64,000 bases of DNA from Flavobacterium sp. 90 (GTDB lineage Bacteria > Bacteroidota > Bacteroidia > Flavobacteriales > Flavobacteriaceae). Below, piece by piece: positions 43,655 through 61,823 of this stretch (positions within the stretch are counted from its first letter, which is position 1; the number at the start of each line of letters is the position of its first letter). A program made the translations under genes and the position numbers. The stretch covers positions 3,162,001 to 3,226,000 of the forward strand of contig NZ_SMGE01000001.1 of the NCBI RefSeq assembly GCF_004339525.1, in the 5' to 3' direction. Below the pieces are notes generated by a model. It was not told where the DNA came from. It saw nothing but the letters and a program-made list of their open reading frames with translations, and searched no databases.

Positions 43655-44500
43655 TCACAAATTTAATTTTCGATATTGTAAAGGAGAAGTTTGTTTTAAC
43701 TCTTTGAATTTTCTGTTGAAATTTGAGATGTTATTAAAGCCACATAATTCGGCAATTTCTAAAACAGAAAGTTCACTGTTATTTGCTAATAGCTTTGAAG
43801 CGTGCTCAATTCTCACTTCTATTAAAAACTGGAAAAAAGACTTGTTCGTCCGGACTTTAAAATACCGGCAAAAGGCATTTTTGGTCATATTGGCAATCGA
43901 GGCAATTTCGTCTAAATTTATATTTTTACTAAAGTTAGTCATTACATGTTCGAAGACGGTCTGCATACGTTTACCTTCATTATCCGTAATTTTTTTATCA
44001 TATAAGTGATTCGATAATTGCTCTTTATTGTTGTTTGAAAGCCATTTTAAAATTTCCAAAAACAAAATAAAACGTTGGTAATTGTCGGCTTTATTTAGCT
44101 TTTTAAAAGACTTGGTAATTTTCTTTGGAGCATTGTGAATGATGAAGCCGTTTCTGCTGCTTTCTAAAAAAGGATGAATGTTTTTGAAGGTATTTAGATT
44201 GAAAAAATCCTTTCCAAATGAGTTGGTTGTAAAAAATAAGGTAAGCATTATTGAAGATTCATTTTCGTGCACTTCACTTCTAAAAACATGAGGTAAGTTG
44301 CTGCCAATCACTAATATGTCGCCTTGGTTATAGTGCGAAATAGTATCTCCGGCAAAAACGGCACCTTCGCCTTTTTCGATAAAACTAATTTGAATTTCTT
44401 CATGTTGGTGAAGTTTATCATAGAAAACAATTTCTCTATCTTCTTGATATATAAGCGGATCTTCTCCCGATTTAGGGATTTTAAATGGAAAAACTTTCAT
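43655..44500 (-). CDS. AraC-family transcriptional regulator
   Basis: The 281 residues have an N-terminal cupin-like sensor (HEEIQISFIEKGEGAVFAG, about 33-100) and a C-terminal double helix-turn-helix: NINLDEIASIANMTKNAFCR, KVRTNKSFFQFLIEVRIEHA, and LEIAELCGFNNISNFNRKFK. It is transcribed away from the hydroxyproline/peptidase operon and probably activates that locus in response to hydroxyproline, proline or peptides. Its own promoter (44525-44556) contains a copy of the motif found upstream of SusC. Confidence 0.95.
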   Translation of the reverse strand: MKVFPFKIPKSGEDPLIYQEDREIVFYDKLHQHEEIQISFIEKGEGAVFAGDTISHYNQGDILVIGSNLPHVFRSEVHENESSIMLTLFFTTNSFGKDFFNLNTFKNIHPFLESSRNGFIIHNAPKKITKSFKKLNKADNYQRFILFLEILKWLSNNNKEQLSNHLYDKKITDNEGKRMQTVFEHVMTNFSKNINLDEIASIANMTKNAFCRYFKVRTNKSFFQFLIEVRIEHASKLLANNSELSVLEIAELCGFNNISNFNRKFKELKQTSPLQYRKLNL

Positions 44501-44524
44501 GGTTGGTTGGTTAGATAGTTATAT

Positions 44525-44564
44525 CAAATATATTTTATTTCGATAAAAAATAGCAATATATTAG
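44525..44564 (-). promoter_or_regulatory. Promoter of the AraC gene with embedded operator-like word
   Basis: On the minus strand TTG (44556-44554) and TATATTTG (44532-44525) are 21 bases apart. The -33 element sits inside 44549-44564, whose minus-strand sequence CTAATATATTGCTATT matches 14 of 16 bases of the SusC upstream site at 49662-49677. This suggests autoregulation. Confidence 0.55.
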
Positions 44565-44590
44565 TTGGTTTTTTGCTTAAGTGCCTTATA

Positions 44591-44605
44591 TAGGGTAATA
44601 TAGTA
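44591..44605 (+). promoter_or_regulatory. Candidate AraC operator upstream of the DapA-like gene
   Basis: TAGGGTAATATAGTA matches 13 of 15 bases with the site at 60443-60457 and is close to that at 49637-49651. It ends exactly 45 bases before the -7 box at 44651, the same distance as at susC. Confidence 0.5.
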
Positions 44606-44631
44606 TTGTTTTGAGATAATTTTTACGCCTC

Positions 44632-44658
44632 TTGCTTTGTTCAATATAAATAATTTTG
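44632..44658 (+). promoter_or_regulatory. Promoter of the peptidase operon
   Basis: TTG (44632-44634), 16 bases, then TAATTTTG (44651-44658). The start near 44663 excludes the TTG at 44656 as a translation start and supports the ATG at 44680. Confidence 0.55.
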
Positions 44659-44679
44659 GTCCTAATTAAAATCGATATT

Positions 44680-45594
44680 ATGAGTATTCAATGGAAAGGC
44701 GTTATGCCGGCGGTAACCACAAAATTTACTGCAGATGATAAATTAGACTTCAGAATGTTTGAAGTAAACTTAAAAGCGCAACTAGACGCAGGTGTTGAAG
44801 GAATCATACTTGGTGGAACTTTAGGAGAAGCAAGTACACTTCTGGAAGAGGAGAAAAGAGAGTTGGTAAAAGGTACTGTGAGCATGGTTAACAATCAGGT
44901 TCCTGTAATCATGAATATTGCTGAACAAACAACTCGCGGAGCAATTTTGGCAGCTAATATTGCAGAGCAAGATGGAGCAAAAGGATTGATGATGTTGCCT
45001 CCAATGCGTTACAAAGCTTCTGATTTTGAAACTGTAACGTTTTTCTCAGAAGTGGCTAAAAACACTTCACTTCCAATAATGGTTTACAATAATCCAGTTG
45101 ATTATAAAATTGAAGTTACACTAGATATGTTCGAAGAAATCCTGAAATTCGATAATATTCAGGCGGTAAAAGAATCGACAAGAGATATTTCTAATGTAAC
45201 AAGAATGATCAACCGTTTTGGAGATCGTCTAAAAATATTATCAGGAGTCGATACATTGGCTTTAGAAAGTTTATTGATGGGATCTCACGGATGGGTTTCT
45301 GGTTTGGTAGATGCTTTCCCGAGAGAAACTGTAGCGATTTACAAGTTGGCAAAAGCTGGCCGAATTGACGAAGCGCTAAAAATATACAGATGGTTTTTGC
45401 CTTTGTTAGAATTAGATATCAATTCTTTTTTAGTTCAGAATATCAAGCTTGCAGAAGTCGCAACAGGAATTGGAACAGAAAATGTTCGTGCGCCAAGATT
45501 GCCGCTTCGTGGAGCTGAGAGAGAACAAGTTTTAGGAATTATTACCAAAGCATTGGAATCAAGACCGGAATTACCGGATTATAAAAATTTATAA
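44680..45594 (+). CDS. Dihydrodipicolinate synthase-family protein, probable pyrroline-hydroxycarboxylate deaminase
   Basis: The 304-residue TIM-barrel lyase has GGTLGE (45-50, the DapA GTTGE-type loop), Tyr136 in MVYNNP and Schiff-base Lys164 in QAVKEST. It lies next to an AraC regulator, a FAD amino-acid oxidoreductase remnant and Xaa-Pro peptidases, not lysine genes. The best fit is therefore 1-pyrroline-4-hydroxy-2-carboxylate deaminase, which converts the product of D-hydroxyproline oxidation to 2-oxoglutarate semialdehyde. That assignment is inferred from context. The next enzyme needed, an aldehyde dehydrogenase, is missing here. Confidence 0.88.
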   Translation: MSIQWKGVMPAVTTKFTADDKLDFRMFEVNLKAQLDAGVEGIILGGTLGEASTLLEEEKRELVKGTVSMVNNQVPVIMNIAEQTTRGAILAANIAEQDGAKGLMMLPPMRYKASDFETVTFFSEVAKNTSLPIMVYNNPVDYKIEVTLDMFEEILKFDNIQAVKESTRDISNVTRMINRFGDRLKILSGVDTLALESLLMGSHGWVSGLVDAFPRETVAIYKLAKAGRIDEALKIYRWFLPLLELDINSFLVQNIKLAEVATGIGTENVRAPRLPLRGAEREQVLGIITKALESRPELPDYKNL

Positions 45595-45604
45595 TCAAGG
45601 ATAG

Positions 45605-45826
45605 TACATTGATGTGTCCGAAGAGCAAGAAACCTGGTTTGGTTTCAGACCTTGTAAACCTTCTGGTTTGCCAATTATTTCGCGAGCAGAAAAAGTTGTA
45701 AATTTGACTTTCGCAACCGGACACGCCATGATGGGTTTAAGTCTTGCGCCGGCAACAGTAAAAGTTATTACTGAGATTATTTCTGGTAAAACGAATTCTG
45801 TTGCTACTAAAATGTTTCAATTATAA
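45605..45826 (+). pseudogene. Relic: C-terminal 73 residues of a DadA-like FAD oxidoreductase
   Basis: Ten bases after the DapA-like gene a frame opens following the stop codon at 45602. It reads TWFGFRPCKPSGLPIISRAE and LTFATGHAMMGLSLAPATVK, the C-terminal FAD-binding end of D-amino-acid (D-hydroxyproline) dehydrogenases. Intact members have about 400 residues; the FAD-binding N terminus is absent. A GTG at 45614 could start translation, but the product would lack cofactor and active site. The following M24 gene starts 3 bases after its stop codon, as if the original operon end had been kept. Confidence 0.88.
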
Positions 45827-45829
45827 AAG

Positions 45830-47127: not shown

Positions 47128-49290
47128 ATGATTAAAAAACAATTTTTATTACTACTTTTTATTTGCTCAGGAATCTTTGCTCAAACTGGCATTGATATTA
47201 ATGAGTTAAAATGGTTGCCCAATTCACATTCTTTTTGGGTGAATTCTAATCATAATGTTTTAGTTTATGATGTTGATAAATTAAATCAAAGTACTACAGT
47301 TTTAACAGATCAACAATTAAAAAGTGCAGGTTTCAAAGGAGAAGTTGAAGATTTGGTTTGGAATCAGAATAAGACAAAAGTTCTGGTTTATACCAATTCA
47401 AAGATGGTATGGAGAGCTAAAACCAAAGGTGATTATTGGTTTTTTGATTTAGCAACCGGAAAAGGAAGAAAACTGGGAGGGAATTTAGAAGAATCCTCTT
47501 TGATGTTTGCTAAATTTTCAAATGATAACGAAAATGTTGCTTATGTTTCTAAGCATAATATTTATTTGGAGAATCTGGCTTCGGGCAAAATTACTCCTTT
47601 AACAACAGATGGAACAGATAAGGTAATCAACGGAACTTTTGACTGGGTTTATGAAGAAGAACTTGCTGCTCGCGATGGATTTCGTTGGAGTCCTGATGGA
47701 AAAAGTATTGCTTTTTGGCGTGTTGATGCTACAGAGACAAAATTCCATTTGATGATTAATAATACTGATGCTTTATATCCATTTGTAGTTCCTGTAGAAT
47801 ATCCAAAAGCGGGAGAAAAACCTTCTTCTGTAAAAATTGGTGTTATCGATATTGCTTCTTTGAAGACAAATTGGCTGGATATTCCAGGTGAACCAGATAA
47901 TAATTATTTGGTTCGTATGGAATGGGCTGCTAAAGATGCCGTAATGGTGGTTCAGTTGAATAGATATCAAAATCAGGCTTCGATCTATAATTGTAACTCA
48001 CAAACTGGAAAAGCAAATTTAATATATCAGGAAAAGTCACCGGAATGGATTGATGTTTTTGATATTTCTTCTGGGATTTACGATGGGTTTCCGTGTCAGT
48101 TTGTAGACGATGGAAAAGCTTTTTTATGGAGTTCTGATGCTGATGGCTGGATGCATGTTTATAAAATAAGCAGCGACGGAAAGAAGAAAGAGTTAGTTAC
48201 AAAAGGAAATTATGATGCGTATTATAAGGCTTATAATGATAAGACAAAATCTATTTATTACATCTCAAGTCCTAAAGATGCAACGCAAAGATATTTGTAC
48301 GAAACGAATTTAAAATCGGGGAAAACCCAAAGAGTTACTCCTGAAATATTTGAAGGAACTAATGAATATCAATTTTCGACTGATGGATCGTATGCAAAAC
48401 ACACGAATATGAATATCAATCGAAATATAAATACCCGTTTAGTTTCGTTATCCGATCATAAAAAAATATTGCCAAAAGAAGCTGATGTTTTTGTAAAACC
48501 AAACCGTAATTTTTCTTTGGAAAAGTTTAAAGTAACAACGGTTGATGGCGTTGAAATGGACGGAATTATGGCAAAACCTTTAGATTTTGATCCAGCAAAA
48601 AAATACCCATTGTTTTTTTATGTTTATGGTGAACCAATGGCTTGCGTTGCAAATGATATGCCTTATTTGAATGAATTTATTGATTTACTTATTCCGGAAG
48701 GATATATAGGAATTGCAATGGATAATAGAGGAACTCCATCTTTGAAAGGAACAAAATGGAGAAAGTCTATTTATAAAAACATGGGAATTATAAATACTCG
48801 TGATCAGGCGATGGCTGCAAAAGAAATTCTAAAATGGAATTTTATTGATGCTGACAGAGTTGCTGTTCATGGTTGGAGCGGTGGTGGAGCTGTGACGTTG
48901 AATTTAATGTTTCAATATCCTGATATTTACAAAACGGGTGTAGCTATTTCGGCAGTTACAGATCAGCATTTTTATGATAATATCTACACAGAACGTTATA
49001 TGGGATTACCAAGCGAAAACGAAGCGAATTATATTAAGGCTTCGCCGGTAACATACGCTAAGAATTTAAAAGGAAATTTACTTTACATTCATGGAACTGG
49101 TGATGACAATGTACATTACAAAAATGCAGAAGTTTTGATTAATGAATTTATAAAATATGATAGAATGTTTAATTTAATGATTTATCCAAATCGTTCACAT
49201 TCTATCTATGAAGGCGAAGGAACTACACAGCATTTAGTAGATACTTTTGTAAAATTTATATATGAGAAATCTCCTCCGGGAGCAAAATAA
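47128..49290 (+). CDS. Dipeptidyl peptidase IV (S9B)
   Basis: DPP IV releases Xaa-Pro dipeptides from peptide N termini. A signal peptide (about 1-18) indicates the periplasm or outer membrane. Residues 40-470 form the beta-propeller with DWVYEEELAARDGF, the double-glutamate motif that reads the free N terminus. The hydrolase domain has Ser584 (GWSGGGA), Asp659 (GTGDDNVH) and His691 (NRSHSI). All residues are intact. It completes the operon begun by the DapA-like gene and makes the substrates of the M24 enzymes. Confidence 0.96.
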   Translation: MIKKQFLLLLFICSGIFAQTGIDINELKWLPNSHSFWVNSNHNVLVYDVDKLNQSTTVLTDQQLKSAGFKGEVEDLVWNQNKTKVLVYTNSKMVWRAKTKGDYWFFDLATGKGRKLGGNLEESSLMFAKFSNDNENVAYVSKHNIYLENLASGKITPLTTDGTDKVINGTFDWVYEEELAARDGFRWSPDGKSIAFWRVDATETKFHLMINNTDALYPFVVPVEYPKAGEKPSSVKIGVIDIASLKTNWLDIPGEPDNNYLVRMEWAAKDAVMVVQLNRYQNQASIYNCNSQTGKANLIYQEKSPEWIDVFDISSGIYDGFPCQFVDDGKAFLWSSDADGWMHVYKISSDGKKKELVTKGNYDAYYKAYNDKTKSIYYISSPKDATQRYLYETNLKSGKTQRVTPEIFEGTNEYQFSTDGSYAKHTNMNINRNINTRLVSLSDHKKILPKEADVFVKPNRNFSLEKFKVTTVDGVEMDGIMAKPLDFDPAKKYPLFFYVYGEPMACVANDMPYLNEFIDLLIPEGYIGIAMDNRGTPSLKGTKWRKSIYKNMGIINTRDQAMAAKEILKWNFIDADRVAVHGWSGGGAVTLNLMFQYPDIYKTGVAISAVTDQHFYDNIYTERYMGLPSENEANYIKASPVTYAKNLKGNLLYIHGTGDDNVHYKNAEVLINEFIKYDRMFNLMIYPNRSHSIYEGEGTTQHLVDTFVKFIYEKSPPGAK

Positions 49291-49350: not shown

Positions 49351-49375
49351 TTTTGAGATAAATTCAACCGCACAG

Positions 49376-49527
49376 TTCGCTAAGATTTAATTTTACTTTA
49401 TACATAGAAAACGCAAAGTTCTCAAATACAGATCAATACAATCCCGATAGCTATCGGGATTGCGGACTTTGCGCTTTTATAAAAGCTACGATTGTCTAAA
49501 TGTCTTTGCGTGCTTTGCGGTTAAAAT
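49376..49527. repeat. Intergenic TTTGCG element with CCCGATAGCTATCGGG palindrome
   Basis: In the 439-base gap before susC, an element starts with an AACCGCA word and ends with TTTGCGGTTAAA. A perfect 24-base palindrome, core CCCGATAGCTATCGGG, lies at 49439-49462. A related element with the same palindrome lies after susD at 54487-54640. Confidence 0.75.
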
Positions 49528-49636: not shown

Positions 49637-49677
49637 AAGGATAATATAATAGGCTTTTATGGTAATATATTGCCATT
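49637..49677 (+). promoter_or_regulatory. Candidate AraC operator: two half-sites 22 bases apart
   Basis: AAGGATAATATAATA (49637-49651) and GGTAATATATTGCCATT (49661-49677) share the GGNTAATATA or GGTAATATA core; their GG steps are 22 bases apart, two helical turns. AraC-type activators often bind direct half-sites at this spacing. The first word ends 45 bases before the -7-like box at 49697. Confidence 0.5.
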
Positions 49678-49729: not shown

Positions 49730-52700
49730 ATGAAATTTAAGTTTTTTCAAAGAAAAACGGTGGTACTTTTTTTTGTACTGCTAGCGCAATTTGCGTTCGC
49801 ACAAGAGCGGGTTGTGTCAGGAATTGTTTCAGATAATGCAGGAATGCCTTTGCCGGGCGCGAGTGTATTGATTAGAGGAACAAAAACGGGAACTCAAACA
49901 GATTTTGACGGAAAATATTCGCTTAAAGCAAGTTCAAATTCTGTATTGATCTTTAATTATATCGGAATGAAAACTCAGGAAATAATGGCTGCAAATACTA
50001 CTGTAAATGTAGTTATGGCTGGAGGTTCAGAGCAACTTCAGGAAATTGTTGTAACGGCCTTGGGTGTTAAAAGAGAAAAGAAATCTCTGGGATATGCCAC
50101 TCAGGAAATTAAAGGCGAAGATTTGACAAAAGTAAATACTGGTAACGTAGCCAATTCAATTTCCGGGAAAATTGCCGGCGTACAAATCAGACGTAATAAT
50201 AATATTGGAGGTTCTACCAATGTAATTATTCGTGGTACAACTTCATTAACAGGTAATAATCAGGCATTATGGATTGTAGATGGTATTCCGTTAAACAATG
50301 ACAATACTAATAGTGAAGATCAAAAAAGCGGTGGTAATGTTGGTGGATATGATTACGGAAATGCTGCTGCAGATATCAATCCTGATGATATTGAAACAAT
50401 GAACGTTTTAAAAGGTTCTGCGGCTTCAGCTTTATACGGTTCAAGAGCTTCAAACGGAGTTATTTTGGTTACGCTTAAAAAAGGAAGTAAATCTAAAGGT
50501 GGTTTGGGAGTAACTTTTAGCTCTGGGATTACTATTGGTGTAGTCGATAAAAAGACATTACCGGAATATCAAAATCAATATGGCGGGGGTTATGGAGATT
50601 TTTATGGTACTGTAAATTTAGGCAGTGGTGTGCATCCTTATGCGGCAACTGATGATGCTTCCTGGGGACCAAAATTTGATCCTAATTTATTAGTTTACAA
50701 TTGGAAATCATTTTATCCTCAGTTGCCAGGTTATGGAAAAGCAACACCTTGGACAGCGGTACAGGAAAACCCAAATAGTTTTTATCAAAAGAGTGTGACG
50801 TATGTAAATAATGTTGCAGTTGCAGGATCTAATGAAAATGGTGATTTCAGATTTGGATATACAAATTATAATATGGATCAGGGAATTTTGCCTAATAGCG
50901 ATAATCGCAAGGATAATTTTAATTTATCTGCAAGTTATAATTTAAAGCCTAAAACTAAAATTTCGGCTTCAGCCAATTACTTAAAGGCGAATGCGAAAGG
51001 AATGAATGAAACTGGTTATGGTGATGGAGGAAACAATTATTTGAGCAGTATTAGACAATGGTATTCAACGAGTGTAGATTTTAAAGATTTAAGGGATGCT
51101 TATAATTTAACAGGACAAAATACAACCTGGAATGTGGCTGGTCCTAATGATTTGGCAGTTCAGTTTCATGATAATCCATACTTTCAGAGATATAATAATT
51201 ACAACAGTCTGGCTCGTGATCGTTTCTTTGGAAACGTTAATTTAACTACACAAGTAAACGACTGGTTTGATATTACTGGTAAAGGAGCTGTAGATTATTA
51301 TCACCAATTACAAGAAGAGCGCATTGCTGTAGGTTCAAAAAGAACTCCAAACGGACTTGGACAATATTCAAGATACGATAAAGATTTTAGAGAGATCAAT
51401 TTTGATTTGATCCTAAATTTTAAAACTGGTATCACCGAAGGTATAAAATTCAATGGAATGGTTGGGGCAAATTCAAGACGATCTGTTAGTAATTCAATAT
51501 ACGCCAGAACAAATGGAGGTTTGGTAGTGCCGGGAATGTATGCTTTGAATAATTCTATTGACAAAATAAACAGTCCTGACGAACGTGAGATTACACTTGG
51601 AACAAATAGTGTTTATGCTAATGCAAGTTTTAATTTCTTAGATACTTATTTCTTAGAGGGAACTTATCGCGTGGATGAATCTTCGACGTTGCCAAAAGAT
51701 AATAATGTTTATTCATACCCTTCTATTACCGGGACTTATATTTTTAGTAATCATATTAAAACGGATTGGTTGTCTTTTGGAAAATTACGTCTGAATTATG
51801 CTGAAACAGGAAATGATGCTCCTTTTGCTGTAACTACTGCAACTTATCCTAAAAGTGACAATTTTGGTGATGGCGGAATTCGTTTTTCTACAGAAAACGA
51901 TAAAAGTAATGCCAACTTAAAAAGTGAGTTGACAAAAGGTGTTGAAGCGGGTATTGAACTTAAATTGTTTAAAAACAGATTAGGTTTTGATTTTTCGTAC
52001 TATAAAACAAATACGACAAACCAAATTCTTTCTATTGAAACTCCGTCGCAAACAGGATATACAAGAGCGTGGATAAATGCCGGAGATGTTCAGAATAAAG
52101 GATTTGAAGTAACGATGAATGTAATTCCGGTAAAAACTGCAAATTTCTCATGGGAAGTAAAAGTAAACTGGTCTACAAATAAAAATGAAGTGATTTCGTT
52201 AGGAGAGGCAAACAGAATTTCGTTAGGGTCTTTTCAGGGTGTAGGTTATGTTGCTGAAGTAGGAAAACCAGTTGGACAACTTATTGGTTCCGGATTTACA
52301 TATTTAAACGGGCAAAAAGTAATTCGTGCAAACGGAAGATATTTACAAACTGCCGGAGCTACTATTGGAGATGTAAACCCAGATTGGATTGGTGGTGTAA
52401 ATAACGTTTTGACGTATAAAAACTTCACATTTAATTTCTTAATTGATGTTAAAAAAGGCGGAGATGTTTATTCATTAGATCAGCGTTTTGGACATACTAC
52501 GGGAATTTATGAAAGTACAGTAACAAATAATCATTTAGGACATCCGCAGAGAGATCCTGTTGCAAGCGGAGGAGGAATTTTATTGCCTGGCGTGAAAGAA
52601 GACGGAACTCCAAATGATAAAATTGTAAGTGTAGAAGGTGCCAATGGATATTCTTTTTATAACTCAATGCCAGAACAGCAATATGTTTATGATGCTTCTT

Positions 52701-52936
52701 ATGTAAAGTTACGTGAGGTAGGATTAAGCTACAGATTACCTTCTAAGTTTCTTGCAAAGACTTTTATGAGCAGTATAATTTTTGCTTTTAATGGATCTAA
52801 TTTATGGATCATAAGTAAAAATTTACCTTATGCAGATCCGGAAGCAGGAATGTCTTCAGGAAATCTTCAGGGTTTTCAAACAGGAGTATTACCTACATCA
52901 AAGGAGTATAACTTTAATATGAAAGTTCAATTCTAA
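49730..52936 (+). CDS. SusC/RagA-family TonB-dependent outer membrane transporter
   Basis: The 1068 residues run: signal peptide (about 1-25, FAFAQ); a carboxypeptidase-regulatory-like domain (about 28-105, SGIVSDNAGMPLPGASVLIR, then TDFDGKYSL); plug domain with NVIIRGTTSLTGNNQALWIV and the SALYGSRASNGVILVT strand; and a C-terminal barrel ending in KVQF. With its SusD partner 11 bases downstream it should import oligomers. The surrounding genes are peptidases and no glycoside hydrolase is present, so the cargo is most probably peptides. Confidence 0.97.
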   Translation: MKFKFFQRKTVVLFFVLLAQFAFAQERVVSGIVSDNAGMPLPGASVLIRGTKTGTQTDFDGKYSLKASSNSVLIFNYIGMKTQEIMAANTTVNVVMAGGSEQLQEIVVTALGVKREKKSLGYATQEIKGEDLTKVNTGNVANSISGKIAGVQIRRNNNIGGSTNVIIRGTTSLTGNNQALWIVDGIPLNNDNTNSEDQKSGGNVGGYDYGNAAADINPDDIETMNVLKGSAASALYGSRASNGVILVTLKKGSKSKGGLGVTFSSGITIGVVDKKTLPEYQNQYGGGYGDFYGTVNLGSGVHPYAATDDASWGPKFDPNLLVYNWKSFYPQLPGYGKATPWTAVQENPNSFYQKSVTYVNNVAVAGSNENGDFRFGYTNYNMDQGILPNSDNRKDNFNLSASYNLKPKTKISASANYLKANAKGMNETGYGDGGNNYLSSIRQWYSTSVDFKDLRDAYNLTGQNTTWNVAGPNDLAVQFHDNPYFQRYNNYNSLARDRFFGNVNLTTQVNDWFDITGKGAVDYYHQLQEERIAVGSKRTPNGLGQYSRYDKDFREINFDLILNFKTGITEGIKFNGMVGANSRRSVSNSIYARTNGGLVVPGMYALNNSIDKINSPDEREITLGTNSVYANASFNFLDTYFLEGTYRVDESSTLPKDNNVYSYPSITGTYIFSNHIKTDWLSFGKLRLNYAETGNDAPFAVTTATYPKSDNFGDGGIRFSTENDKSNANLKSELTKGVEAGIELKLFKNRLGFDFSYYKTNTTNQILSIETPSQTGYTRAWINAGDVQNKGFEVTMNVIPVKTANFSWEVKVNWSTNKNEVISLGEANRISLGSFQGVGYVAEVGKPVGQLIGSGFTYLNGQKVIRANGRYLQTAGATIGDVNPDWIGGVNNVLTYKNFTFNFLIDVKKGGDVYSLDQRFGHTTGIYESTVTNNHLGHPQRDPVASGGGILLPGVKEDGTPNDKIVSVEGANGYSFYNSMPEQQYVYDASYVKLREVGLSYRLPSKFLAKTFMSSIIFAFNGSNLWIISKNLPYADPEAGMSSGNLQGFQTGVLPTSKEYNFNMKVQF

Positions 52937-52947: not shown

Positions 52948-54405
52948 ATGAAAATAGTAAAAACAATATTTTTTGCAGGAGCCATTTTACTTTCAGTTGC
53001 TTCGTGTGATAATTTAGATGATTTAAATCAAAATAAAAAAGCATATACAAGTGTTTTGCCTTCTAGTTTAATGGCAAGCGCACAGGTTGCATATGCTTAT
53101 TTCCTGACGAATGCTTCTGTAAATGATAATAATTTTAGAGGATACGCGCAATATTGGACCAGTACAACTTACACAGATGAGGTAAATTATAATCAGGAAA
53201 GAAGAAATTTAGGAAATTCTCATTCGGTTCTATTGTACAGAGATGTTCTGCAGGATTTGACAAATGCCCAAAAACAAATTAGGAATAGAGAGGCACTTGG
53301 AACAATTGAAAAAGAGATCAAGAAAAATGATATCGCAATTCTTGACGTTCAAATTATAATAGTGTATCAAACTCTTGTTGATTTATTTGGTAATGTTCCT
53401 TATACAGAAGCTTTAGATATTGTAGGACATCCACGCCCTAAGTATGATGATGCAAAAAGCATTTATTTGGATTTGGCAGCCCGTTTAGATGTTGCCATTG
53501 CAGATTTAAGCGGAGGCACAAGCAGTTTGGGTGGTGGAGATTTAATATTTCGCGGTAATGTTGGTCAATGGAAATTATTGGCGAATAGTGTAAAGTTAAA
53601 ATTAGGTTTACATCTTGCAGACATAGAATCGGCAAAAGCCAAAGAAATGGTTGAAAGTGCGTATAATTCAGGATTGATGACAAATAAAAATGAATCGGCG
53701 TTGTTTAAGTATTACGCAACAGTAATTGATATGAATCCTTTGTATAATACTTTGGTAAATGAAAGCCAAACGGTACCAACAGAGTTTTTTGTTAATGAAT
53801 TGAATGCAAAAGATGATCCAAGGCGAGATGTTTATTTTAATCCGGAATCTAAAATAGGAGGCGTTTATAAAGGAGCTCCTTATGCTAAGCAAGTGAGTTA
53901 TGGTAATTTCTCGAATGTAGGACCAAAGTTAAAGGAGAAAACAAATCCGGGAGTTATTTTTGATTATACAGAAACATGCTTCTTGTTGGCAGATGCAGCA
54001 AATAGAGGGTTTTCTGTAGGAGGAACGGCAGAAGATTATTATAAAAAAGGAATTTTGGCAAGCATGAATTTCTGGGGAATTGGAAGTAGTGATGCGCAAA
54101 CTTATCTTGATAGAACTGATGTAGCTTTTACAACAGCAGCAGGAACGGCTAAGCAAAAAATTGCCTACCAACTTTGGATTGCTTATTACAATAGAGGATT
54201 TGAAGCTTGGACCGAATATAGAAGATTAGATTACCCAATTTTGCAAGCGCCTTCAACTGCGGTTGATGCTGCCGAAGGGAAAGTTCCGGTTCGTAATATT
54301 TATTCACTTTTTGATAAAACGTTGAATAAAAACAATTATGAAGCTGCTGCTACTGCTATTGGAGGAGATCGAATGACAACAAAAATATTTTGGGACAAAT
54401 TTTAA
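52948..54405 (+). CDS. SusD/RagB-like nutrient-binding lipoprotein
   Basis: The lipobox SVASC gives acylated Cys20. The 485 residues fit the SusD-like_2 group (PF12771): LNQNKKAYTSVLPSSLMASA near the N terminus, LDVQIIIVYQTLVDLFGNVP as a TPR-like helix, and the C-terminal IAYQLWIAYYNRGFEAWTEY. It caps the SusC barrel on the cell surface and should set substrate binding. Members of this subgroup are often, not always, next to peptidases. A terminator follows. Confidence 0.95.
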   Translation: MKIVKTIFFAGAILLSVASCDNLDDLNQNKKAYTSVLPSSLMASAQVAYAYFLTNASVNDNNFRGYAQYWTSTTYTDEVNYNQERRNLGNSHSVLLYRDVLQDLTNAQKQIRNREALGTIEKEIKKNDIAILDVQIIIVYQTLVDLFGNVPYTEALDIVGHPRPKYDDAKSIYLDLAARLDVAIADLSGGTSSLGGGDLIFRGNVGQWKLLANSVKLKLGLHLADIESAKAKEMVESAYNSGLMTNKNESALFKYYATVIDMNPLYNTLVNESQTVPTEFFVNELNAKDDPRRDVYFNPESKIGGVYKGAPYAKQVSYGNFSNVGPKLKEKTNPGVIFDYTETCFLLADAANRGFSVGGTAEDYYKKGILASMNFWGIGSSDAQTYLDRTDVAFTTAAGTAKQKIAYQLWIAYYNRGFEAWTEYRRLDYPILQAPSTAVDAAEGKVPVRNIYSLFDKTLNKNNYEAAATAIGGDRMTTKIFWDKF

Positions 54406-54466: not shown

Positions 54467-54486
54467 AAAATGAAATAACAGAAGTT

Positions 54487-54775
54487 TTACCGCAAAAGTC
54501 GCTAAGGGGCTATTTTACTTTACTTATAGGAAACACAAAGTCCGCAAAGCTTGATCTACACAATCCCGATAGCTATCGGGATTGCGGACTTTATGTTTTT
54601 ACAAAACCATATTTAAAAGAAGCTTAGTGAGCTTTGTGGTTATATAAAGTCAGTTTTAAAATTAACTGGACAAAACATAGTACGACGCTAAGGTTTACGC
54701 AAGGTTCGCAAAGTTTTTAATAAAAAGCTTTGCGAACCTTGCGTTTTGTTTCATTGCGAACTTTACAGTTAAACT
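54487..54775. repeat. Two TTTGCG-type elements between susD and the M43 protease
   Basis: This 572-base gap has no gene. The first element (54487-54640) repeats the design of that before susC, with the CCCGATAGCTATCGGG palindrome at 54561-54584. The second (about 54683-54775) holds perfect 16-base arms CGCAAGGTTCGCAAAG / CTTTGCGAACCTTGCG at 54698-54713 and 54728-54743. Confidence 0.75.
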
Positions 54776-54977: not shown

Positions 54978-57900
54978 ATGAAAATAAAATTACTAATGTT
55001 ATTACTGGTTTTCTCGGCAGGGAAAATTAGTGCGCAAGGACTTCCTTGCCGGACGACGGAAGAAAACGCTAAAGTGTATCGGGCGAACCCAAATTCACTT
55101 CAGGAGAAAAAAGATTTTGACAATTTTACAAAGAATTTTACGCTTCAGCGAAAAAGTAAAACTTCAAAAACAGCAGCAGTTACCTATACAATTCCAGTAG
55201 TTTTTCATATTTACGGAGACGTGCAAAGTGGTAAAACAATTACTTATGAAAAGATCGTAAATCATTTGGCGCAATTAAATGATGACTTTAACGGAAGAAA
55301 CGCAGATTTTCAAACCGTTGAACCTTTTTTTCAGGCAAGAAGAGGAACAATAAACATCGAATTTAAACTTGCCAAAAAAGACCCAAATGGCGGTTGTACA
55401 ACCGGTGTAGTTTTTCATACCGCAAAAAATGGTTACGGAAACGGCGGTGGCTACGATGATCAGATTGCCGCAGATGCCTGGGATAATAAAAAATACATGA
55501 ACGTTTATATTCAGAATGATTTGTATAATGACGGTGCTTTAAATAATTCAGGAGTTGCATGGTATCCGGATTCTGGCATGACAGCAAGCAATACAGCGCG
55601 TGTGGTTTTTAACGGAGCTTATCTTTATGATAACTCCTATAGCAAAGAATTTTCGGCAACCTTAACACATGAGTTTGGTCACTTTCTAAATTTAATTCAC
55701 ACTTTTGAAGGAGGTTGTACCGGAACTGATGAAGTTGTAGATACACCTCCAGAAGATGGTTTACATACTTTGGCTTGTACGCCTGGAACAAACTGTAGCG
55801 GAGACAAAGTAAATTTCGAAAATTACATGGGATATAATGGCGCACAAGGCTGTTATAAAATGTATACGCAAGGGCAAATCGACAGAATGTTGGCGGCATT
55901 GCAACATCCTGCAAGAATCACACTTTGGCAACCTCAAAATTTAATAGACACAGGTGTAAATTCAACAGAAAGTAGTTTAGTTGCCAGTGTAACCACATTA
56001 AAAGAGACAGTTGTAAACGATGGAGCTTTTAATACGTCATCAGTAGTGACGTTAAGTGCTGGTAAAACATTTGCTTTAAGCTCAGGAACAATGACAGCTG
56101 GAACACATTTTACTCACACTTTTCCAGCAGGAATAACTCCGGTAGTTACAGTAAATTCAAACGGACAATTAACAGTAACGCTAATAGGAAAAGCTGTTAA
56201 TCACGCCGCAGCACAAAATACAACAGCTGGAATTACATTTTTACCCGCTGCTTTTACCGGAGGAACAACAGGTTTATCTTGTACATCTTTATTTTTCAAT
56301 TTGAAATTTACAGATCCGTATGGGATATTTTTTGTTGATATGCCTAACATAACTATTTCTTCTGGTTTAACATGGAAAGCATTCGATATTGCAAAAGGAG
56401 ATGATACTTCTTTCGGAGCTTGGCGTTATGTTGCCAATGCATTAAAAATTGAAACTTATGGTAAGAGATTAGCATGCGAAACAGGAACCAGAAATATTTC
56501 GCTATTAGCACAAAATGTAGCTGTTGGTCCGGCAAGTAATATGACAGCGCCGGGAGTATATCCGAATCAGTTAGATTTAAGGACCCCAACTTATACTACT
56601 TGGGAAGGGAAATCCGGATATGTAGGTTTTGAATACCAAATAGAAGGACAAACTTGTTATGGTTGGTTCAAAGTTGATGTTGCAGCGGGTGGAGATGCTT
56701 TTACCGTTTCGGAATATGCTTATAACACGCAGCCAAATGCACCAATTTATACCGGAATGTCTAATAAAACTGCGGTAACATTATCTGATAGTGTTTTGTA
56801 TGAGGCAGAGGCAAATGATGGAGGTGTTACAAGTACCAGTACGATTACATTGTCAACTAACAACGGAACATTTACGAAAAGTACAGGAACCTTTACAGCA
56901 GGAACTGATTATACGGTAACTGGAGTTCCTTCGGGATTAACAGCTGTATTAACGCTTCAGGCGAATAATAAAGTTGCGGTATCTTTTACAGGAAAAGCAA
57001 CTGCACATCTTCCGGCAAATGATGCTTCTGTGGTTATTACTTTGAAAGATGCTGCTGTAACAGGAGGAGTTTCAACTCTTGATAGTGCGACAAAAACAAT
57101 CAATTTAAAATTTGATTCGCCTTACGGAGTTTTCTATGTTAACAATCCTGATTATGTTGCTTCGGCGGCACAAACATGGCAGTATTTTAATTTAGCACTT
57201 GGCGATAATACAGAATATGGAGCTTGGCAATTTGCAGCTGCGGCTTTAAAAATCGAAACTTATGGTAAAAGATTAGTTTGCCAAACCGGAACAAGAAATA
57301 TTACCTTAATTAATCAGGGAACTTCAATTGGTGCATCAAGTAGTTTTGTGGCTCCTGGAGCGGCATATCCGGATCAGTTGGATTTGAGAACGGCAACTTA
57401 CACATCTTGGGATAATCAAACAGGATATGTTGGTTTTGAATATACAAGCAGAGGGCGTATTTGTTACGGTTGGATGCATATTAAAGTAGAAGTCGGAGGA
57501 GTTGGTTACGCTGTTTTGGATTATGCTTATAACACAAAACCGAACGAATCAATTTTAGCAGGAACTCAAACTCCTGTAACAGTTTTGGCGCCAACAAGTT
57601 TAACAGCGACTGCTAATAATGCTAATTTGGAAGTACAATTGACATGGGTTAATAATGCGACAAATGCTACAAACATTGCCATTGAAAGAGCAGGAACTGA
57701 TAATGTTTTTGCCGAAATAACAACATTGCCAAGTACAGCGTTAACGTATACAAATACAGGATTAACAGCTGGAAATACTTATAAATACAGAGTTCGTGCA
57801 AAAGCAAATACTATTTATTCGGGGTATTCTAATGAAGTTTCTGCAACAATAACAGCCAATTCGGCTTATTGTACTACTCAGGCAGACAATAAATATGAAT

Positions 57901-58829
57901 ATATTAACGCTGTAACTATCGGAAGCTTTAATAATGCTTCGGGTAAAAATACAGGAGGTTACGCTGATTATACTTCTAAAACAATTACAGTATCGCCAAG
58001 TGCTCCTACAAACGTAAGTTTAACAGCTGGTTTCTCCGGTGATGCTTATACAGAGTTTTGGGGAATCTGGATCGATTATAATAAAAACAATATTTTTGAA
58101 GCTTCAGAAAAAGTGATTGACGGAATTTCGTCGAACGGAACTGCAACCGGAAGTTTTACTGCTGCTGCATTTACAGGATCAACAAGAATGCGTATAGTGA
58201 TGAAATACTATTCAAATCCTTCTGCTTGCGGTAATATTGCTGACGGAGAAGTAGAAGATTATACGGTAGTTTCAGGAACAGTGACAAATCCAAATCCAAC
58301 TACATTGGCTACGCCTGTTGCAGGTAATTCAGGAGTTTATTCATCAGGATTTTATAGTTCATGGACTACAGTTACGAATGCTACGAGTTATGAAGTGCAA
58401 TTAAATAATGCAACTACAGGTTGGACAACATTTGGAACTTCGACAACTTATTATTTATGGATTCCAAAACAAGGAACGCAAACTGTTTATCAATTTAGAG
58501 TAAGAGCAAAAAATGCTACAGAATTCAGTGATTGGAGCAATCCATTGACAATTGATTTACAAAGCGGAAGTGCAGGACCAGATCAAATCGATTTTACCAA
58601 GTCATTTGCGATGTATCCTAATCCGGCTTCAGATGTTGTTAATTTTAGTTTCAAAAACCTAAATATAGCAACTACTAAAATAACGATTTATGATAGTACA
58701 GGAAATTTGATAGATGTTTTACAAAACAATGTAACTTCTTATCCTGTAAATCATCTTAGAAAAGGAATTTACATTGTAATAGCAACAGACGGAGGTTTTA
58801 CAGAAAACAAAAAATTATTAATTAAGTAA
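54978..58829 (+). CDS. Secreted M43 (cytophagalysin-type) metalloprotease with type IX sorting domain
   Basis: The 1283 residues run: signal peptide (1-20); a short propeptide; M43 catalytic domain with HEFGHFLNLIH (His231, Glu232, His235) and Met-turn Met284; two copies of a ~265-residue beta-rich unit (about 335-593 and 596-861) sharing ALKIETYGKRL and SGYVGFEY/TGYVGFEY; a fibronectin type III domain (about 866-960); a GEVED-type domain (about 964-1100); a second FnIII-like domain (about 1108-1195); and a type A C-terminal sorting domain (about 1209-1283, MYPNPASD...GIYIV). It should be exported by the type IX system and begin protein breakdown outside the cell. A collagen-like substrate is inferred from neighbours. 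Confidence 0.95.
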   Translation: MKIKLLMLLLVFSAGKISAQGLPCRTTEENAKVYRANPNSLQEKKDFDNFTKNFTLQRKSKTSKTAAVTYTIPVVFHIYGDVQSGKTITYEKIVNHLAQLNDDFNGRNADFQTVEPFFQARRGTINIEFKLAKKDPNGGCTTGVVFHTAKNGYGNGGGYDDQIAADAWDNKKYMNVYIQNDLYNDGALNNSGVAWYPDSGMTASNTARVVFNGAYLYDNSYSKEFSATLTHEFGHFLNLIHTFEGGCTGTDEVVDTPPEDGLHTLACTPGTNCSGDKVNFENYMGYNGAQGCYKMYTQGQIDRMLAALQHPARITLWQPQNLIDTGVNSTESSLVASVTTLKETVVNDGAFNTSSVVTLSAGKTFALSSGTMTAGTHFTHTFPAGITPVVTVNSNGQLTVTLIGKAVNHAAAQNTTAGITFLPAAFTGGTTGLSCTSLFFNLKFTDPYGIFFVDMPNITISSGLTWKAFDIAKGDDTSFGAWRYVANALKIETYGKRLACETGTRNISLLAQNVAVGPASNMTAPGVYPNQLDLRTPTYTTWEGKSGYVGFEYQIEGQTCYGWFKVDVAAGGDAFTVSEYAYNTQPNAPIYTGMSNKTAVTLSDSVLYEAEANDGGVTSTSTITLSTNNGTFTKSTGTFTAGTDYTVTGVPSGLTAVLTLQANNKVAVSFTGKATAHLPANDASVVITLKDAAVTGGVSTLDSATKTINLKFDSPYGVFYVNNPDYVASAAQTWQYFNLALGDNTEYGAWQFAAAALKIETYGKRLVCQTGTRNITLINQGTSIGASSSFVAPGAAYPDQLDLRTATYTSWDNQTGYVGFEYTSRGRICYGWMHIKVEVGGVGYAVLDYAYNTKPNESILAGTQTPVTVLAPTSLTATANNANLEVQLTWVNNATNATNIAIERAGTDNVFAEITTLPSTALTYTNTGLTAGNTYKYRVRAKANTIYSGYSNEVSATITANSAYCTTQADNKYEYINAVTIGSFNNASGKNTGGYADYTSKTITVSPSAPTNVSLTAGFSGDAYTEFWGIWIDYNKNNIFEASEKVIDGISSNGTATGSFTAAAFTGSTRMRIVMKYYSNPSACGNIADGEVEDYTVVSGTVTNPNPTTLATPVAGNSGVYSSGFYSSWTTVTNATSYEVQLNNATTGWTTFGTSTTYYLWIPKQGTQTVYQFRVRAKNATEFSDWSNPLTIDLQSGSAGPDQIDFTKSFAMYPNPASDVVNFSFKNLNIATTKITIYDSTGNLIDVLQNNVTSYPVNHLRKGIYIVIATDGGFTENKKLLIK

Positions 58830-58850
58830 TTATAAATTGGTTATAAGAAG

Positions 58851-58890
58851 AAAAGGGGAAACTATAAATAGTTTCCCCTTTTGTTTTACT
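58851..58890 (+). terminator. Terminator of the M43 protease gene
   Basis: Fifteen-base perfect arms AAAAGGGGAAACTAT / ATAGTTTCCCCTTTT with a two-base loop (58851-58865, 58868-58882). Confidence 0.88.
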
Positions 58891-58942
58891 TCTAATAAAG
58901 GTTATAATAAATATATAATTATGCTGATCAAGGGTTGAGATG

Positions 58943-59092
58943 TACCGTTAGGCACTAAATATTGGTAGAAAAACAAGGATCGCAAAAAAAACAGCGTGCC
59001 GTAGGTACGCAATGATATTATTTTGTTGCGTACCTACGGCACGCCAACGAATTTCAAATCTAATGACTACCGATATTGAGTGCCTAGCGGCA
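58943..59092. repeat. Nested inverted repeat, TTGGTAG family
   Basis: Inner arms of 19 bases (58994-59012 and 59026-59044, GCGTGCCGTAGGTACGCAA and complement) are perfect. Outer arms of 26 bases (58943-58968 and 59067-59092), containing TAGGCACT and TTGGTAG, pair with four mismatches. The outer word matches the tandem units at 4161-4385. The element fills most of the gap between convergent genes. Confidence 0.82.
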
Positions 59093-59120
59093 CTTTTTTG
59101 TTTTTATTTAGAATAAAAAA

Positions 59121-60341: not shown

Positions 60342-60377
60342 CTTTTTTGTTTTAAGGTTAATGATTCAAGTTCATTT

Positions 60378-60385
60378 CAAAATTA
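60378..60385 (-). promoter_or_regulatory. -7 box of the M24 gene at 59121
   Basis: TAATTTTG on the minus strand gives a leader of about 30 bases. Confidence 0.5.
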
Positions 60386-60442
60386 AGATATTATTTCTGT
60401 ATAGTTTTATTTTAACTTTAATCAGATAAAATAAAACAATTT

Positions 60443-60479
60443 AAGGGTAATATAATATCATATTTAGATTTGTATTGCC
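60443..60479 (+). promoter_or_regulatory. Candidate AraC operator and promoter of the S28/S37-type peptidase gene
   Basis: AAGGGTAATATAATA (60443-60457) matches 14 of 15 bases of the susC site. TAGATTTG (60465-60472) is a full -7 box, and TATTGCC (60473-60479) lies 30 bases from the motif start, as it does at susC (31 bases). The motif replaces the -33 element. Confidence 0.55.
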
Positions 60480-60512
60480 TGTATTTTTAGAAGCTCAATT
60501 AAATATCAAAAA

Positions 60513-61823
60513 ATGCAAAAAATACAAAATTCATTAGTATTACTTTGTTTTGTTCTGATGTCCTTTTTTGGTTCAGCACAAACAACTTCAAATTTACACC
60601 AAAAGCTTGTTGAGTTATTTCCGAAAGCCGAAATTACCGTTATCGAAAATTTAGAAGGTTATTCAGAATCTTATCAATTGATTTTGGATGAACCATTAGA
60701 CCATAAAAATCCGCAAAAAGGAACCTTTAAACATTATATTTATCTTTCTCATCTTGATTTTAATAAACCAATGGTTGTCGAAACGCATGGCTATAATACA
60801 GGTAATATTAAAAGTGAAGTAAGTAAGTTATTAAACGCAAATCAAATTGCGGTAGAGTATCGTTTTTACGGAAAATCGCGTCCGGAACCACTTCCGTGGG
60901 AATATTTGACAAACGATCAGGCTATTGCTGATTATCATGTTATTGTGACAAAATTAAAGCAAATATATTCCGGTAAGTGGGTCTCAACCGGAATCAGTAA
61001 AGGCGGAGAAACAGCGCTAATTTATAAGTCAAAATATCCAAATGATGTAGATGTTGCGATGCCTTATGTAGCGCCGCTAATTAATACGCAGGAAGATTCC
61101 AGAACAATAAATCATGACAGAACCATTGGAACGCCGGAATGCAGAGCTGCAATTACGGTGTTTCAAAGAGCGATTTTAGAAAATAGAGAAGCTGTTTTGA
61201 AAGAGTTTGCACAATATGCAGAAGCTAAAAAAATGACATTTGCAGAAGTTCCGTTTAATGAATCTTTAGAATATGCTGTTTTGGAATTTCCTTTTTCTTT
61301 CTGGCAGTGGGGAGGGAAATGTGAAGCTATTCCATCGCCAAAAGCTACTCCAAAAGAACTGTTTAATTATTTGAATGATATAGTCGGAATGGGAACTTAT
61401 AATGACAAGAATTATTTTAATTATTTACCGTCGTATTATCAGCATTTGAGTGAACTTGGATATTATGGATTTGATTTAACTCCGGTTGTTGATTTATTAC
61501 AGGTTGTAAAAAGTTCTTCAAATGACCGATTTGCGCCCAAAGATGTTGTAATAAAGTACAATCCGAAATACATCAAAAAAGTTAGAAAATATGTTGAAAA
61601 TAAAGGAAATAAGATTTTATATATCTACGGAGGTTATGATACGTGGTTTTCGTGCTCTCCCACACCGAATCCTAAATTAGATGCATTGAAAATGGTTCTG
61701 CCAGCTGGAAGTCATTCTACGAGAGTTAAAAACTTCCCTGAAAAAGATCAGAAGTTAATTAAGGAAACCTTAAATAGATGGTTAGAAATAAAACCGTTAG
61801 AGTATAATGCTGAGGTGAAATAG
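60513..61823 (+). CDS. Secreted S28/S37-type prolyl peptidase (PS-10 family)
   Basis: A signal peptide (about 1-23, GSAQ) leads into a 436-residue alpha/beta hydrolase of the PF05576 type. PMVVETHGYN and AVEYRFYGKSRPEPLPWEYL precede the nucleophile Ser162 in STGISKGGETA; the probable acid and histidine lie in YIYGGYDTWFSCS and LPAGSHSTRV. Relatives are tripeptidyl- or prolyl-specific aminopeptidases from Streptomyces and Bacteroidota. With the neighbouring DPP IV it would trim proline-containing peptides outside the cytoplasm. Confidence 0.9.
   Translation: MQKIQNSLVLLCFVLMSFFGSAQTTSNLHQKLVELFPKAEITVIENLEGYSESYQLILDEPLDHKNPQKGTFKHYIYLSHLDFNKPMVVETHGYNTGNIKSEVSKLLNANQIAVEYRFYGKSRPEPLPWEYLTNDQAIADYHVIVTKLKQIYSGKWVSTGISKGGETALIYKSKYPNDVDVAMPYVAPLINTQEDSRTINHDRTIGTPECRAAITVFQRAILENREAVLKEFAQYAEAKKMTFAEVPFNESLEYAVLEFPFSFWQWGGKCEAIPSPKATPKELFNYLNDIVGMGTYNDKNYFNYLPSYYQHLSELGYYGFDLTPVVDLLQVVKSSSNDRFAPKDVVIKYNPKYIKKVRKYVENKGNKILYIYGGYDTWFSCSPTPNPKLDALKMVLPAGSHSTRVKNFPEKDQKLIKETLNRWLEIKPLEYNAEVK

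What the first reader, a model, noticed from the sequence alone, without database searches (positions are those of the whole stretch)
43655..61823. A proline-peptide (collagen-like) utilisation locus built around SusC/SusD with peptidases instead of glycoside hydrolases
Within 18 kb the sequence shows an AraC regulator, a DapA-family enzyme, two different Xaa-Pro peptidases (M24), a DPP IV with an intact EE motif and triad, a SusC/SusD pair, a 1283-residue M43 protease with type IX sorting domain, and a secreted S28/S37-type peptidase. Nearly every enzyme is proline-directed and no CAZyme is present. The inference is a SusCD system for proline- and hydroxyproline-rich peptides, such as those from collagen or gelatin. 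I know of SusCD systems with peptidases, but not of one described with exactly this gene set.
Basis: partly seen in the sequence, partly recalled or inferred. Interest (0 to 1): 0.85.

Follow-up and report, generated by a model that had tools for sequence, protein, structure and literature searches.

The report
Hydroxyproline-peptide uptake locus, half outsourced
This Flavobacterium locus looks like an import-and-digest system for protein fragments rich in proline and hydroxyproline (as in collagen or plant cell-wall proteins), but this strain has deleted most of the hydroxyproline-burning enzymes here and keeps them in a second gene cluster that appears to share the same genetic switch.

Summary
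The DapA-family gene is most likely the hydroxyproline (Hyp) pathway deaminase: 72-74% identical to the one in a complete Hyp cluster 1.96 Mb away. In 13 related Flavobacterium loci it heads AraC|DapA-ALDH-HypE-DAO-M24B, followed by SusC, with DPP4 in between in 10 of 13. The window has lost ALDH, HypE and most of DAO; 72 codons of DAO remain. An operator-like repeat, GRTAATATARTA-N9-GRTAAT, lies 86-90 bp before DapA and SusC. Its only other exact copy in the genome precedes SusC of the second Hyp cluster, and it is within 2 mismatches upstream of DapA in 62 of 80 loci (shuffles 0.2). SusCD therefore most likely serves Hyp-containing peptides. Collagen versus plant Hyp-rich glycoprotein is unresolved. 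The gene set is not new: almost certainly the same locus is printed for F. collinsii as an "oligopeptide" PUL (PMC10132118, passages read), without mention of Hyp. New variant of a known kind.

The parts
43655..44500 (-). AraC-family regulator, divergent from DapA; 57% identical to the AraC of the second Hyp cluster
   Evidence: N-terminal part 96/180 and HTH part 62/100 identical
44594..44620 (+). operator-like two-half-site repeat upstream of DapA (site start 86 bp before ATG 44680)
44656..45594 (+). [quoted passage not shown]
   Evidence: below the DapA equivalog cut-off (162 vs 206 bits)
45608..45826 (+). relic: last 72 codons and stop of a D-amino-acid-oxidase-type (D-Hyp oxidase) gene
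   Evidence: 68% identical to residues 340-411 of the intact L006 gene
45830..47125 (+). M24 Xaa-Pro aminopeptidase type, no signal peptide seen, presumed cytosolic
   Evidence: within 10 kb after DapA in 24 of 71 loci
47128..49290 (+). DPPIV (S9) with signal-peptide-like N-terminus; EE motif present, serine motif GWSGGG
49640..49666 (+). operator-like repeat, site start 90 bp before SusC
   Evidence: same place, at most 2 mismatches to the looser pattern, in 13 of 13 Flavobacterium loci with this SusC
49730..52936 (+). SusC/RagA TonB-linked outer-membrane transporter
   Evidence: 588 bits, cut-off 368
52948..54405 (+). SusD-like_2 lipoprotein (lipobox-like VASC at the N-terminus)
54978..58829 (+). 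M43 metalloprotease with fn3, GEVED and T9SS sorting tail; contains an internal tandem duplication of about 268 aa
59121..60341 (-). M24 prolidase type
   Evidence: 387 bits to PDB 'Proline dipeptidase' 5cik/4r60
60425..60457 (+). weaker operator-like site (2 mismatches to the looser pattern, overlapping a further half site), site start 88 bp before S37
60513..61823 (+). S37-family serine peptidase with signal-peptide-like N-terminus

Best explanation
This is a locus for hunting, importing and digesting hydroxyproline/proline-rich peptides. The T9SS-exported M43 protease cuts the protein outside the cell, and SusCD imports oligopeptides. Periplasmic DPPIV and S37 remove short Xaa-Pro(Hyp) units, and cytosolic aminopeptidase P and prolidase release free Pro and Hyp. 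Hyp is then burnt to 2-oxoglutarate via HypE, D-Hyp oxidase, the DapA-family deaminase and a semialdehyde dehydrogenase. In this strain three of those four catabolic genes were deleted here, and the complete second cluster at 5.16 Mb supplies them. Both clusters probably answer to AraC-type regulators that read the same operator. Shown by computation: gene identities, the order in relatives, the deletion relic, the shared and conserved site. Inferred: peptide specificity, compartments (from signal-peptide-like N-termini), supply from the second cluster, that the AraC proteins bind the site, and that Hyp is the inducer.
For: Window DapA is 74% identical over 282 aa (72% over 304) to the DapA inside a complete cluster with ALDH, 4-hydroxyproline epimerase (593 bits, cut-off 376) and DAO. 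Close relatives keep AraC|DapA-ALDH-HypE-DAO-M24B, with DPP4 and then SusC in ten and SusC directly in three. DAO relic in the window. ALDH, HypE and DAO all lie within 10 kb downstream in 66 of 71 loci with at least 9 kb there. Operator: the strict pattern gives 3 exact hits in 6.65 Mb, namely window DapA, window SusC and SusC of the second Hyp cluster (reversed control 1); 62 of 80 loci at <=2 mismatches upstream of DapA vs 0.2 in shuffles (61 of the 62 at 52-67 bp, all on the same strand); 13 of 13 Flavobacterium loci upstream of SusC at <=2 mismatches to the looser pattern. Intact genes under purifying selection against strain JAS: dN/dS 0.03-0.14, DapA 0.038 (SusC over its first 706 codons only). 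Pathway logic 4HypE-DAAO-DHDPS-ALDH: PMC4113996 (passages read).
Against: No ligand, induction or growth data. The SusD family does not decide peptide versus glycan: the best PDB sequence matches are SusDs of unknown ligand or glycan loci, with peptide-linked BT_2263 weaker. The M43 upstream site is weak and not conserved. The two Aquimarina SusC genes near DapA lack the operator. Outside the own genome only 4 of 39 relatives had an exact operator hit (whether the others have Hyp genes was not tested). With up to 2 mismatches the looser pattern is no more frequent than its reversed control (46 vs 75). Its five exact hits, all in the two Hyp loci, are partly fitted, because I widened the pattern after seeing the second cluster; two of its four 1-mismatch hits lie outside the Hyp loci, one inside an ORF and one unexplained. 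Most of the 71-80 loci are related species, not independent.
Confidence: 0.78

Rival explanations
1. The natural substrate is plant (or algal) hydroxyproline-rich glycoprotein, such as extensin, rather than collagen; the window locus takes up the stripped peptide backbone while glycosidases of the second cluster remove Hyp-arabinosides and Ser-galactose.
For: The second Hyp cluster is followed by GH127, DUF885, DUF5695, GH43, DUF6055 and GH36 genes and shares the operator, with 1-mismatch sites 106 bp before a DUF6055-T9SS gene and 153 bp before another SusC. F. cutihirudinis has the same cluster from SusC to GH43, with SusCD more diverged (52% and 41%) and GH36/DUF6055 not seen in the stretch fetched. 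A GH36-like gene (74%) lies just upstream of AraC at a window-type locus on a contig of the same length as the F. anhuiense one, and another (49%) lies near an operator in a further genome. GH127 acts on Hyp-linked arabinose of extensin (PMC4454575, passages read).
Against: No CAZyme inside the window locus. Four relatives hold a second proline-racemase-family gene between M24 and S37; in the two that I read it has the Cys/Thr pattern of trans-3-Hyp dehydratases and an ornithine-cyclodeaminase-family (Pyr2C reductase type) neighbour, and 3-Hyp is (recall) a collagen residue not known from plant wall proteins.
Confidence: 0.3
2. A general proline-rich or bulk oligopeptide uptake locus in which Hyp is irrelevant and DapA is a dying remnant.
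For: Only one of four Hyp enzymes remains in the window. PMC10132118 (passages) files the F. collinsii locus simply under oligopeptides. M43 relatives are (recall) broad proteases.
Against: DapA is under strong purifying selection (dN/dS 0.038). SusC and DapA share a rare site that also marks the second Hyp cluster. 13 Flavobacterium loci keep the full Hyp pathway next to this SusC.
Confidence: 0.13
3. The locus is decaying and no longer works in this strain.
For: Internal deletion of about 3.75 kb relative to strain JAS. F. cutihirudinis also lacks ALDH/HypE/DAO there, and no SusC follows its DPP4.
Against: The other genes are open and show dN/dS 0.03-0.14. Operators are kept. A complete set of the missing enzymes exists at 5.16 Mb.
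Confidence: 0.06
4. DapA here is lysine biosynthesis or a sialic-acid lyase and sits there by chance, the SusCD being a glycan system.
For: Family membership only.
Against: Below DapA and NanA equivalog cut-offs. 74% identical to the DapA of the Hyp cluster. A better DHDPS match lies elsewhere in the genome (255 bits at 6251880). No CAZyme in the locus.
Confidence: 0.02

Closest known systems
F. collinsii TRV642 PUL TRV642_0198 to -0209 (PMC10132118, passages read)
   Same: Five peptidases of S9, S37, M24 and M43 around susCD, with the SusD in IPR041662; predicted for oligopeptides. The 12 locus tags match the 12 genes in F. collinsii CECT7796 (L012 and L152), with SusD and SusC falling on 0201/0202: almost certainly the same locus (my inference; the TRV642 sequence was not fetched).
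   Different: Neither hydroxyproline nor collagen occurs in the paper's main text; the F. collinsii CECT7796 locus keeps the four Hyp genes that this strain has mostly lost.
Colwellia BB5 21-kb collagen-utilisation cluster (PMC7883544, passages read)
   Same: Collagenase, TonB receptor, proline peptidases, 4-Hyp epimerase, D-Hyp dehydrogenase, deaminase and KGSA dehydrogenase in one cluster.
   Different: Gammaproteobacterial, built on an M9 collagenase and MFS transporter; no SusCD, DPPIV, S37 or M43 is mentioned in the passages read.
trans-4-hydroxy-L-proline pathway clusters (4HypE-DAAO-DHDPS-ALDH; PMC4113996, passages read)
   Same: Same four enzyme families in the relatives and in the second cluster.
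   Different: The passages read mention transport systems such as TRAP and ABC, not SusCD and exported proteases; the window itself has one of the four enzymes.
RagAB and BT2263-2264 oligopeptide SusCD transporters (as cited in PMC10132118)
   Same: SusCD pair that imports oligopeptides.
   Different: Neither is tied, as far as I know (recall), to a Hyp catabolic operon or a shared operator.
F. psychrophilum SusCD co-induced with collagenase (PMC9723704, passages read)
   Same: Flavobacterial SusCD proposed to import collagen peptides.
   Different: Supported by co-expression; hydroxyproline does not occur in the main text; no orthology tested here.

Membership tests
SusCD peptide-utilisation locus | SusC/SusD pair, adjacent and co-directional | tested here: met
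   (11-bp gap)
SusCD peptide-utilisation locus | peptidases and no CAZymes in the cluster | tested here: met
   for the window; some relatives have GH genes within or beside it
SusCD peptide-utilisation locus | SusD binds and SusC transports peptides | not testable with these tools
   PDB sequence matches are mixed; AlphaFold model weak in many regions (mean pLDDT 66.5); fold search not run, machine busy
trans-4-Hyp catabolic cluster | 4-hydroxyproline epimerase present | tested here: not met
   absent from the window locus; one Pro_racemase-family gene in the genome, at 5166718
trans-4-Hyp catabolic cluster | D-Hyp oxidase (DAO family) intact | tested here: not met
   only the last 72 codons remain
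trans-4-Hyp catabolic cluster | DHDPS-family Pyr4H2C deaminase | tested here: met
   by sequence and context only
trans-4-Hyp catabolic cluster | KGSA (aldehyde) dehydrogenase | tested here: not met
   no ALDH6 match in the window by tblastn; present in relatives and the second cluster
collagen-utilisation cluster (Colwellia type) | M9 collagenase | tested here: inconclusive
   no PF01752 match in the genome, but the control genomes were silent too
glycan PUL | CAZymes next to SusCD | tested here: not met
dipeptidyl peptidase IV | DPPIV_N propeller, S9 domain, EE motif | tested here: met
   nearest solved chain is a dipeptidyl peptidase IV (5olj)
dipeptidyl peptidase IV | GWSYGG serine motif with the Tyr lining S1 (role of the Tyr recalled) | tested here: not met
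   GWSGGG in the window, in the 11 orthologues L009-L019 and in two more distant homologues (L025, L026); the genome's other DPPIV (L143) has GWSYGG

The most novel reading that the evidence does not exclude
One AraC-type operator code unites two hydroxyproline loci in the same genome: the window locus for bare (collagen-like) Hyp peptides and a second one for glycosylated plant Hyp-rich glycoproteins. Once the second cluster was present, the first shed its redundant catabolic genes but kept its uptake, peptidases and the deaminase, so that two SusCD loci share one central pathway in trans. The same DapA-without-HypE arrangement in F. cutihirudinis and in two Aquimarina strains suggests this outsourcing has happened more than once. 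The DPPIV of this system may be adapted to Hyp at P1 through loss of the S1 tyrosine.
Probability: 0.4. Interest if true: 0.68.

Novelty: new variant of a known kind. Interest (0 to 1): 0.52.

Why it matters
Substrates of peptide-type SusCD systems are mostly unknown (recall). Here the catabolic genes and a shared operator point to one residue, hydroxyproline, so the substrate becomes directly testable. If right, it links Bacteroidota SusCD biology to turnover of collagen and plant wall glycoproteins, offers a predicted operator usable to annotate Hyp regulons across Flavobacteriaceae, and gives a clear case of two loci sharing one catabolic pathway.

Tried and rejected
Lysine-biosynthesis or sialic-acid role for DapA: rejected (below cut-offs; 74% identical to the Hyp-cluster paralogue; stronger DHDPS match elsewhere). 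M43 as part of the operator group: its upstream site is weak and not conserved, left open. SusD structure: the alignment of 21 sequences (A1) gave a model of mean pLDDT 66.5; too weak to read a binding site, and the fold search did not run. Plasmid search with DapA: only distant matches, best 64% in Spirosoma; no bearing. M9 collagenase search: no match but silent controls. Operator search in 40 genomes, the own one included: 5 of 40 had an exact match (4 of 39 others, five sites). Of those five sites one lies before DapA (L175), one before a SusC-like gene (L176), one between AraC and M24B (L177), one near a GH36-like gene (L178) and one inside a coding sequence, taken as chance (L179). Literature: ten searches; none of their listings showed a Hyp-SusCD regulon. 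That is a statement about these searches and this open-licence library only; I read passages of six papers and none in full.

Results against my reading: no excess of the looser operator pattern over the reversed control when 2 mismatches are allowed (46 vs 75); two of its four 1-mismatch hits lie outside the Hyp loci, 237709 inside an ORF and 4079533 between ORFs without known link; no operator before the two Aquimarina SusC genes; a GGGTAATATAGTA half site between a glycoside-hydrolase-like and a SusC-like ORF (named by eye) at 1102087, which I do not explain. In F. cutihirudinis I cannot tell whether the catabolic genes were lost separately: the DapA-M24B gap holds only faint collinear matches to the oxidase's end (E 0.1-0.3); four species closer to the window by DapA (L009-L012) keep the operon, so either two losses or loss and regain. 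Rows dropped: the counts out of 71 use only the 71 of 80 loci with at least 9 kb downstream; of 15 fetched stretches the two from F. cutihirudinis are left out of the 12-of-13 count.
Full report
What is there. The window is bases 3162001-3226000 of a 6.65-Mb single-contig genome, a Flavobacterium to judge by its nearest relatives. The last peptidase is S37 (188 bits) rather than S28 (45 bits). The creatinase-N-type M24 resembles solved 'Proline dipeptidase' chains (387 bits), so the two M24 enzymes look like an aminopeptidase P and a prolidase. M43 is nearest mirolysin and ulilysin. The N-termini of DPPIV, S37, SusC and M43 look like signal peptides, SusD has a lipobox-like VASC, and I see none in the two M24 proteins and DapA (read; no predictor was run).

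The missing half. Between DapA and the first M24, frame translation shows a 72-codon stretch ending in a stop that is 68% identical to the end of a D-amino-acid-oxidase-type protein. The same genome has a second cluster at about 5.156-5.174 Mb: SusC, SusD, M61, AraC, DapA, ALDH, 4-hydroxyproline epimerase, DAO, amino-acid permease and an S9 peptidase. The epimerase passes its NCBIfam equivalog cut-off (593 vs 376 bits) and is the only Pro_racemase-family match in the genome. The window DapA is 74% identical to that cluster's DapA over 282 aa and the AraC proteins are 57% identical. This is the trans-4-hydroxy-L-proline pathway set described in PMC4113996 (passages read).

Order in relatives. 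A scan of named genomes with the window DapA gave 80 loci, the cap of the tool. In ten Flavobacterium loci (L009-L018) the order is AraC(-) | DapA-ALDH-HypE-DAO-M24B-DPP4-SusC, and in three more (L021-L023) SusC follows M24B directly. SusD, M43, M24(-) and S37 follow in 12 of the 13 fetched stretches that continue such a locus; L161 lacks M43. Of the 71 loci with at least 9 kb downstream, 66 have ALDH, HypE and DAO, 66 have AraC, 24 have M24B and 15 have a SusC of this kind within the locus. The nearest relative (strain JAS, DapA 97%) has the complete operon, so the window lost about 3.75 kb. F. cutihirudinis (L019) also lacks ALDH/HypE/DAO at this place; its gap holds only faint, inconclusive matches to the oxidase's end, and it too has a second cluster of the same make. 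All 17 relatives tested have exactly one epimerase-level match (82-99% identical to the window genome's); 12 of 17 have a second match of 33-35%, which in the two that I read is dehydratase-like. Two Aquimarina loci with SusC/SusD, DapA, ALDH, M24s and S37 have their epimerase on another contig. Window genes show dN/dS 0.03-0.14 against JAS, DapA 0.038, the oxidase relic 0.19.

A shared operator. Reading the promoters I noticed GGRTAATATARTA. In the window it occurs without mismatch three times, all in this locus: before DapA, SusC and S37; with up to 2 mismatches it is only mildly in excess (14 vs 8.6 expected). Extended to two half sites 21 bp apart it becomes GRTAATATARTA-N9-GRTAAT. With W allowed as the last base it has three exact hits in the genome: window DapA, window SusC, and 101 bp before SusC of the second cluster; the reversed control gives one. 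A looser version (GNTAATATARTA-N9-GNTAAT) has five exact hits, all in the two Hyp loci. I loosened it after seeing the second cluster, so that count is partly circular, and at up to 2 mismatches it is not enriched over its control (46 vs 75). The better test is phylogenetic: within 200 bp upstream of DapA, 62 of 80 loci have the strict site with at most 2 mismatches (dinucleotide shuffles: 0.2 of 80), all on the same strand and 61 of 62 at 52-67 bp before the DapA match. I had seen some of these upstream regions before fixing the pattern. Upstream of SusC the looser pattern is met with at most 2 mismatches in 13 of 13 Flavobacterium loci, with half sites more conserved (0.92, 0.93) than spacer (0.71) or flanks (0.81). 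Site starts lie 86, 90 and 88 bp before the start codons of DapA, SusC and S37. Direct-repeat half sites two helical turns apart suit an AraC-family protein (established knowledge; binding not shown).

Collagen or plant wall. In F. frigoritolerans, F. oncorhynchi, F. hydatis and F. muglaense a second proline-racemase-family gene lies between M24 and S37. In the two that I read (L153, L161) it has SPTGSG instead of the SPCGTG of the epimerase and an ornithine-cyclodeaminase-family neighbour. For L153 that neighbour passes the Pyr2C reductase cut-off (376 vs 322), while the dehydratase model is the best match but below its cut-off (369 vs 540). That suggests 3-hydroxyproline use, which points to collagen (recall). 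In contrast the second cluster of the window genome is followed by GH127, GH43, GH36, DUF6055 and others, and GH127 acts on Hyp-linked arabinose of extensins (PMC4454575, passages read; PMC10850190, start of abstract in the listing). So Hyp-containing peptides are well supported, their source is not settled, and the two loci may split the work.

What is known. PMC10132118 (passages read) lists F. collinsii TRV642_0198 to -0209 as a PUL with five peptidases of S9, S37, M24 and M43, likely for oligopeptides. Gene count and order match the F. collinsii CECT7796 locus seen here, so the gene set is in print, without the Hyp link. PMC7883544 (passages read) describes a Colwellia collagen cluster that unites an M9 collagenase, a TonB receptor and Hyp catabolism. 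The parts I found in no listing are the Hyp operon as the other half of the SusCD locus, the operator, and the deletion with supply from a second cluster. I rate it a new variant of a known kind.

Noticed in passing
G000:C1:5149673-5190122 (L119, L006, L120): Second Hyp cluster beside GH127, DUF885, DUF5695, GH43, DUF6055 and GH36 genes with operator-like sites before two SusC genes, DapA, an S9 peptidase and a DUF6055-T9SS gene: a candidate plant hydroxyproline-rich glycoprotein locus.
   Followed up: partly
47128-49290: DPPIV serine motif is GWSGGG in the window copy, its 11 orthologues and two distant homologues, GWSYGG in the genome's other DPPIV; possible widened S1 pocket. The second cluster's S9 peptidase and L061/L084 gave no match to the pattern G[WG]SxGG, and the EE motif was not found in L025/L026 or the second cluster's S9.
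   Followed up: partly
56369-57564: Internal tandem duplication (spacing 804-807 bp, 70-72% DNA identity) inside the M43 protease gene, between the catalytic domain and fn3.
   Followed up: no
43498-43600, 49360-49484, 54482-54606, 61889-61923: Intergenic repeats, several palindromic and rich in CGCAAAG/CTTTGCG words, including a perfect 26-bp inverted repeat; they flank the locus and lie between its units.
   Followed up: no
L047 and L056 (Aquimarina sp. Aq78): One strain has two DapA loci: one full Hyp cluster, one SusCD-peptidase locus with DapA and ALDH but no epimerase.
   Followed up: no
L149 (F. johnsoniae CI04) and L151: In L149 a MGH1/GH63-like glycosidase in two ORFs lies between the M24 prolidase and S37; in L151 an alpha-galactosidase (Melibiase_2) follows S37.
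   Followed up: no
G000:C1:1102087: Exact half site GGGTAATATAGTA between a glycoside-hydrolase-like and a SusC-like ORF (named by eye), with no second half site.
   Followed up: no
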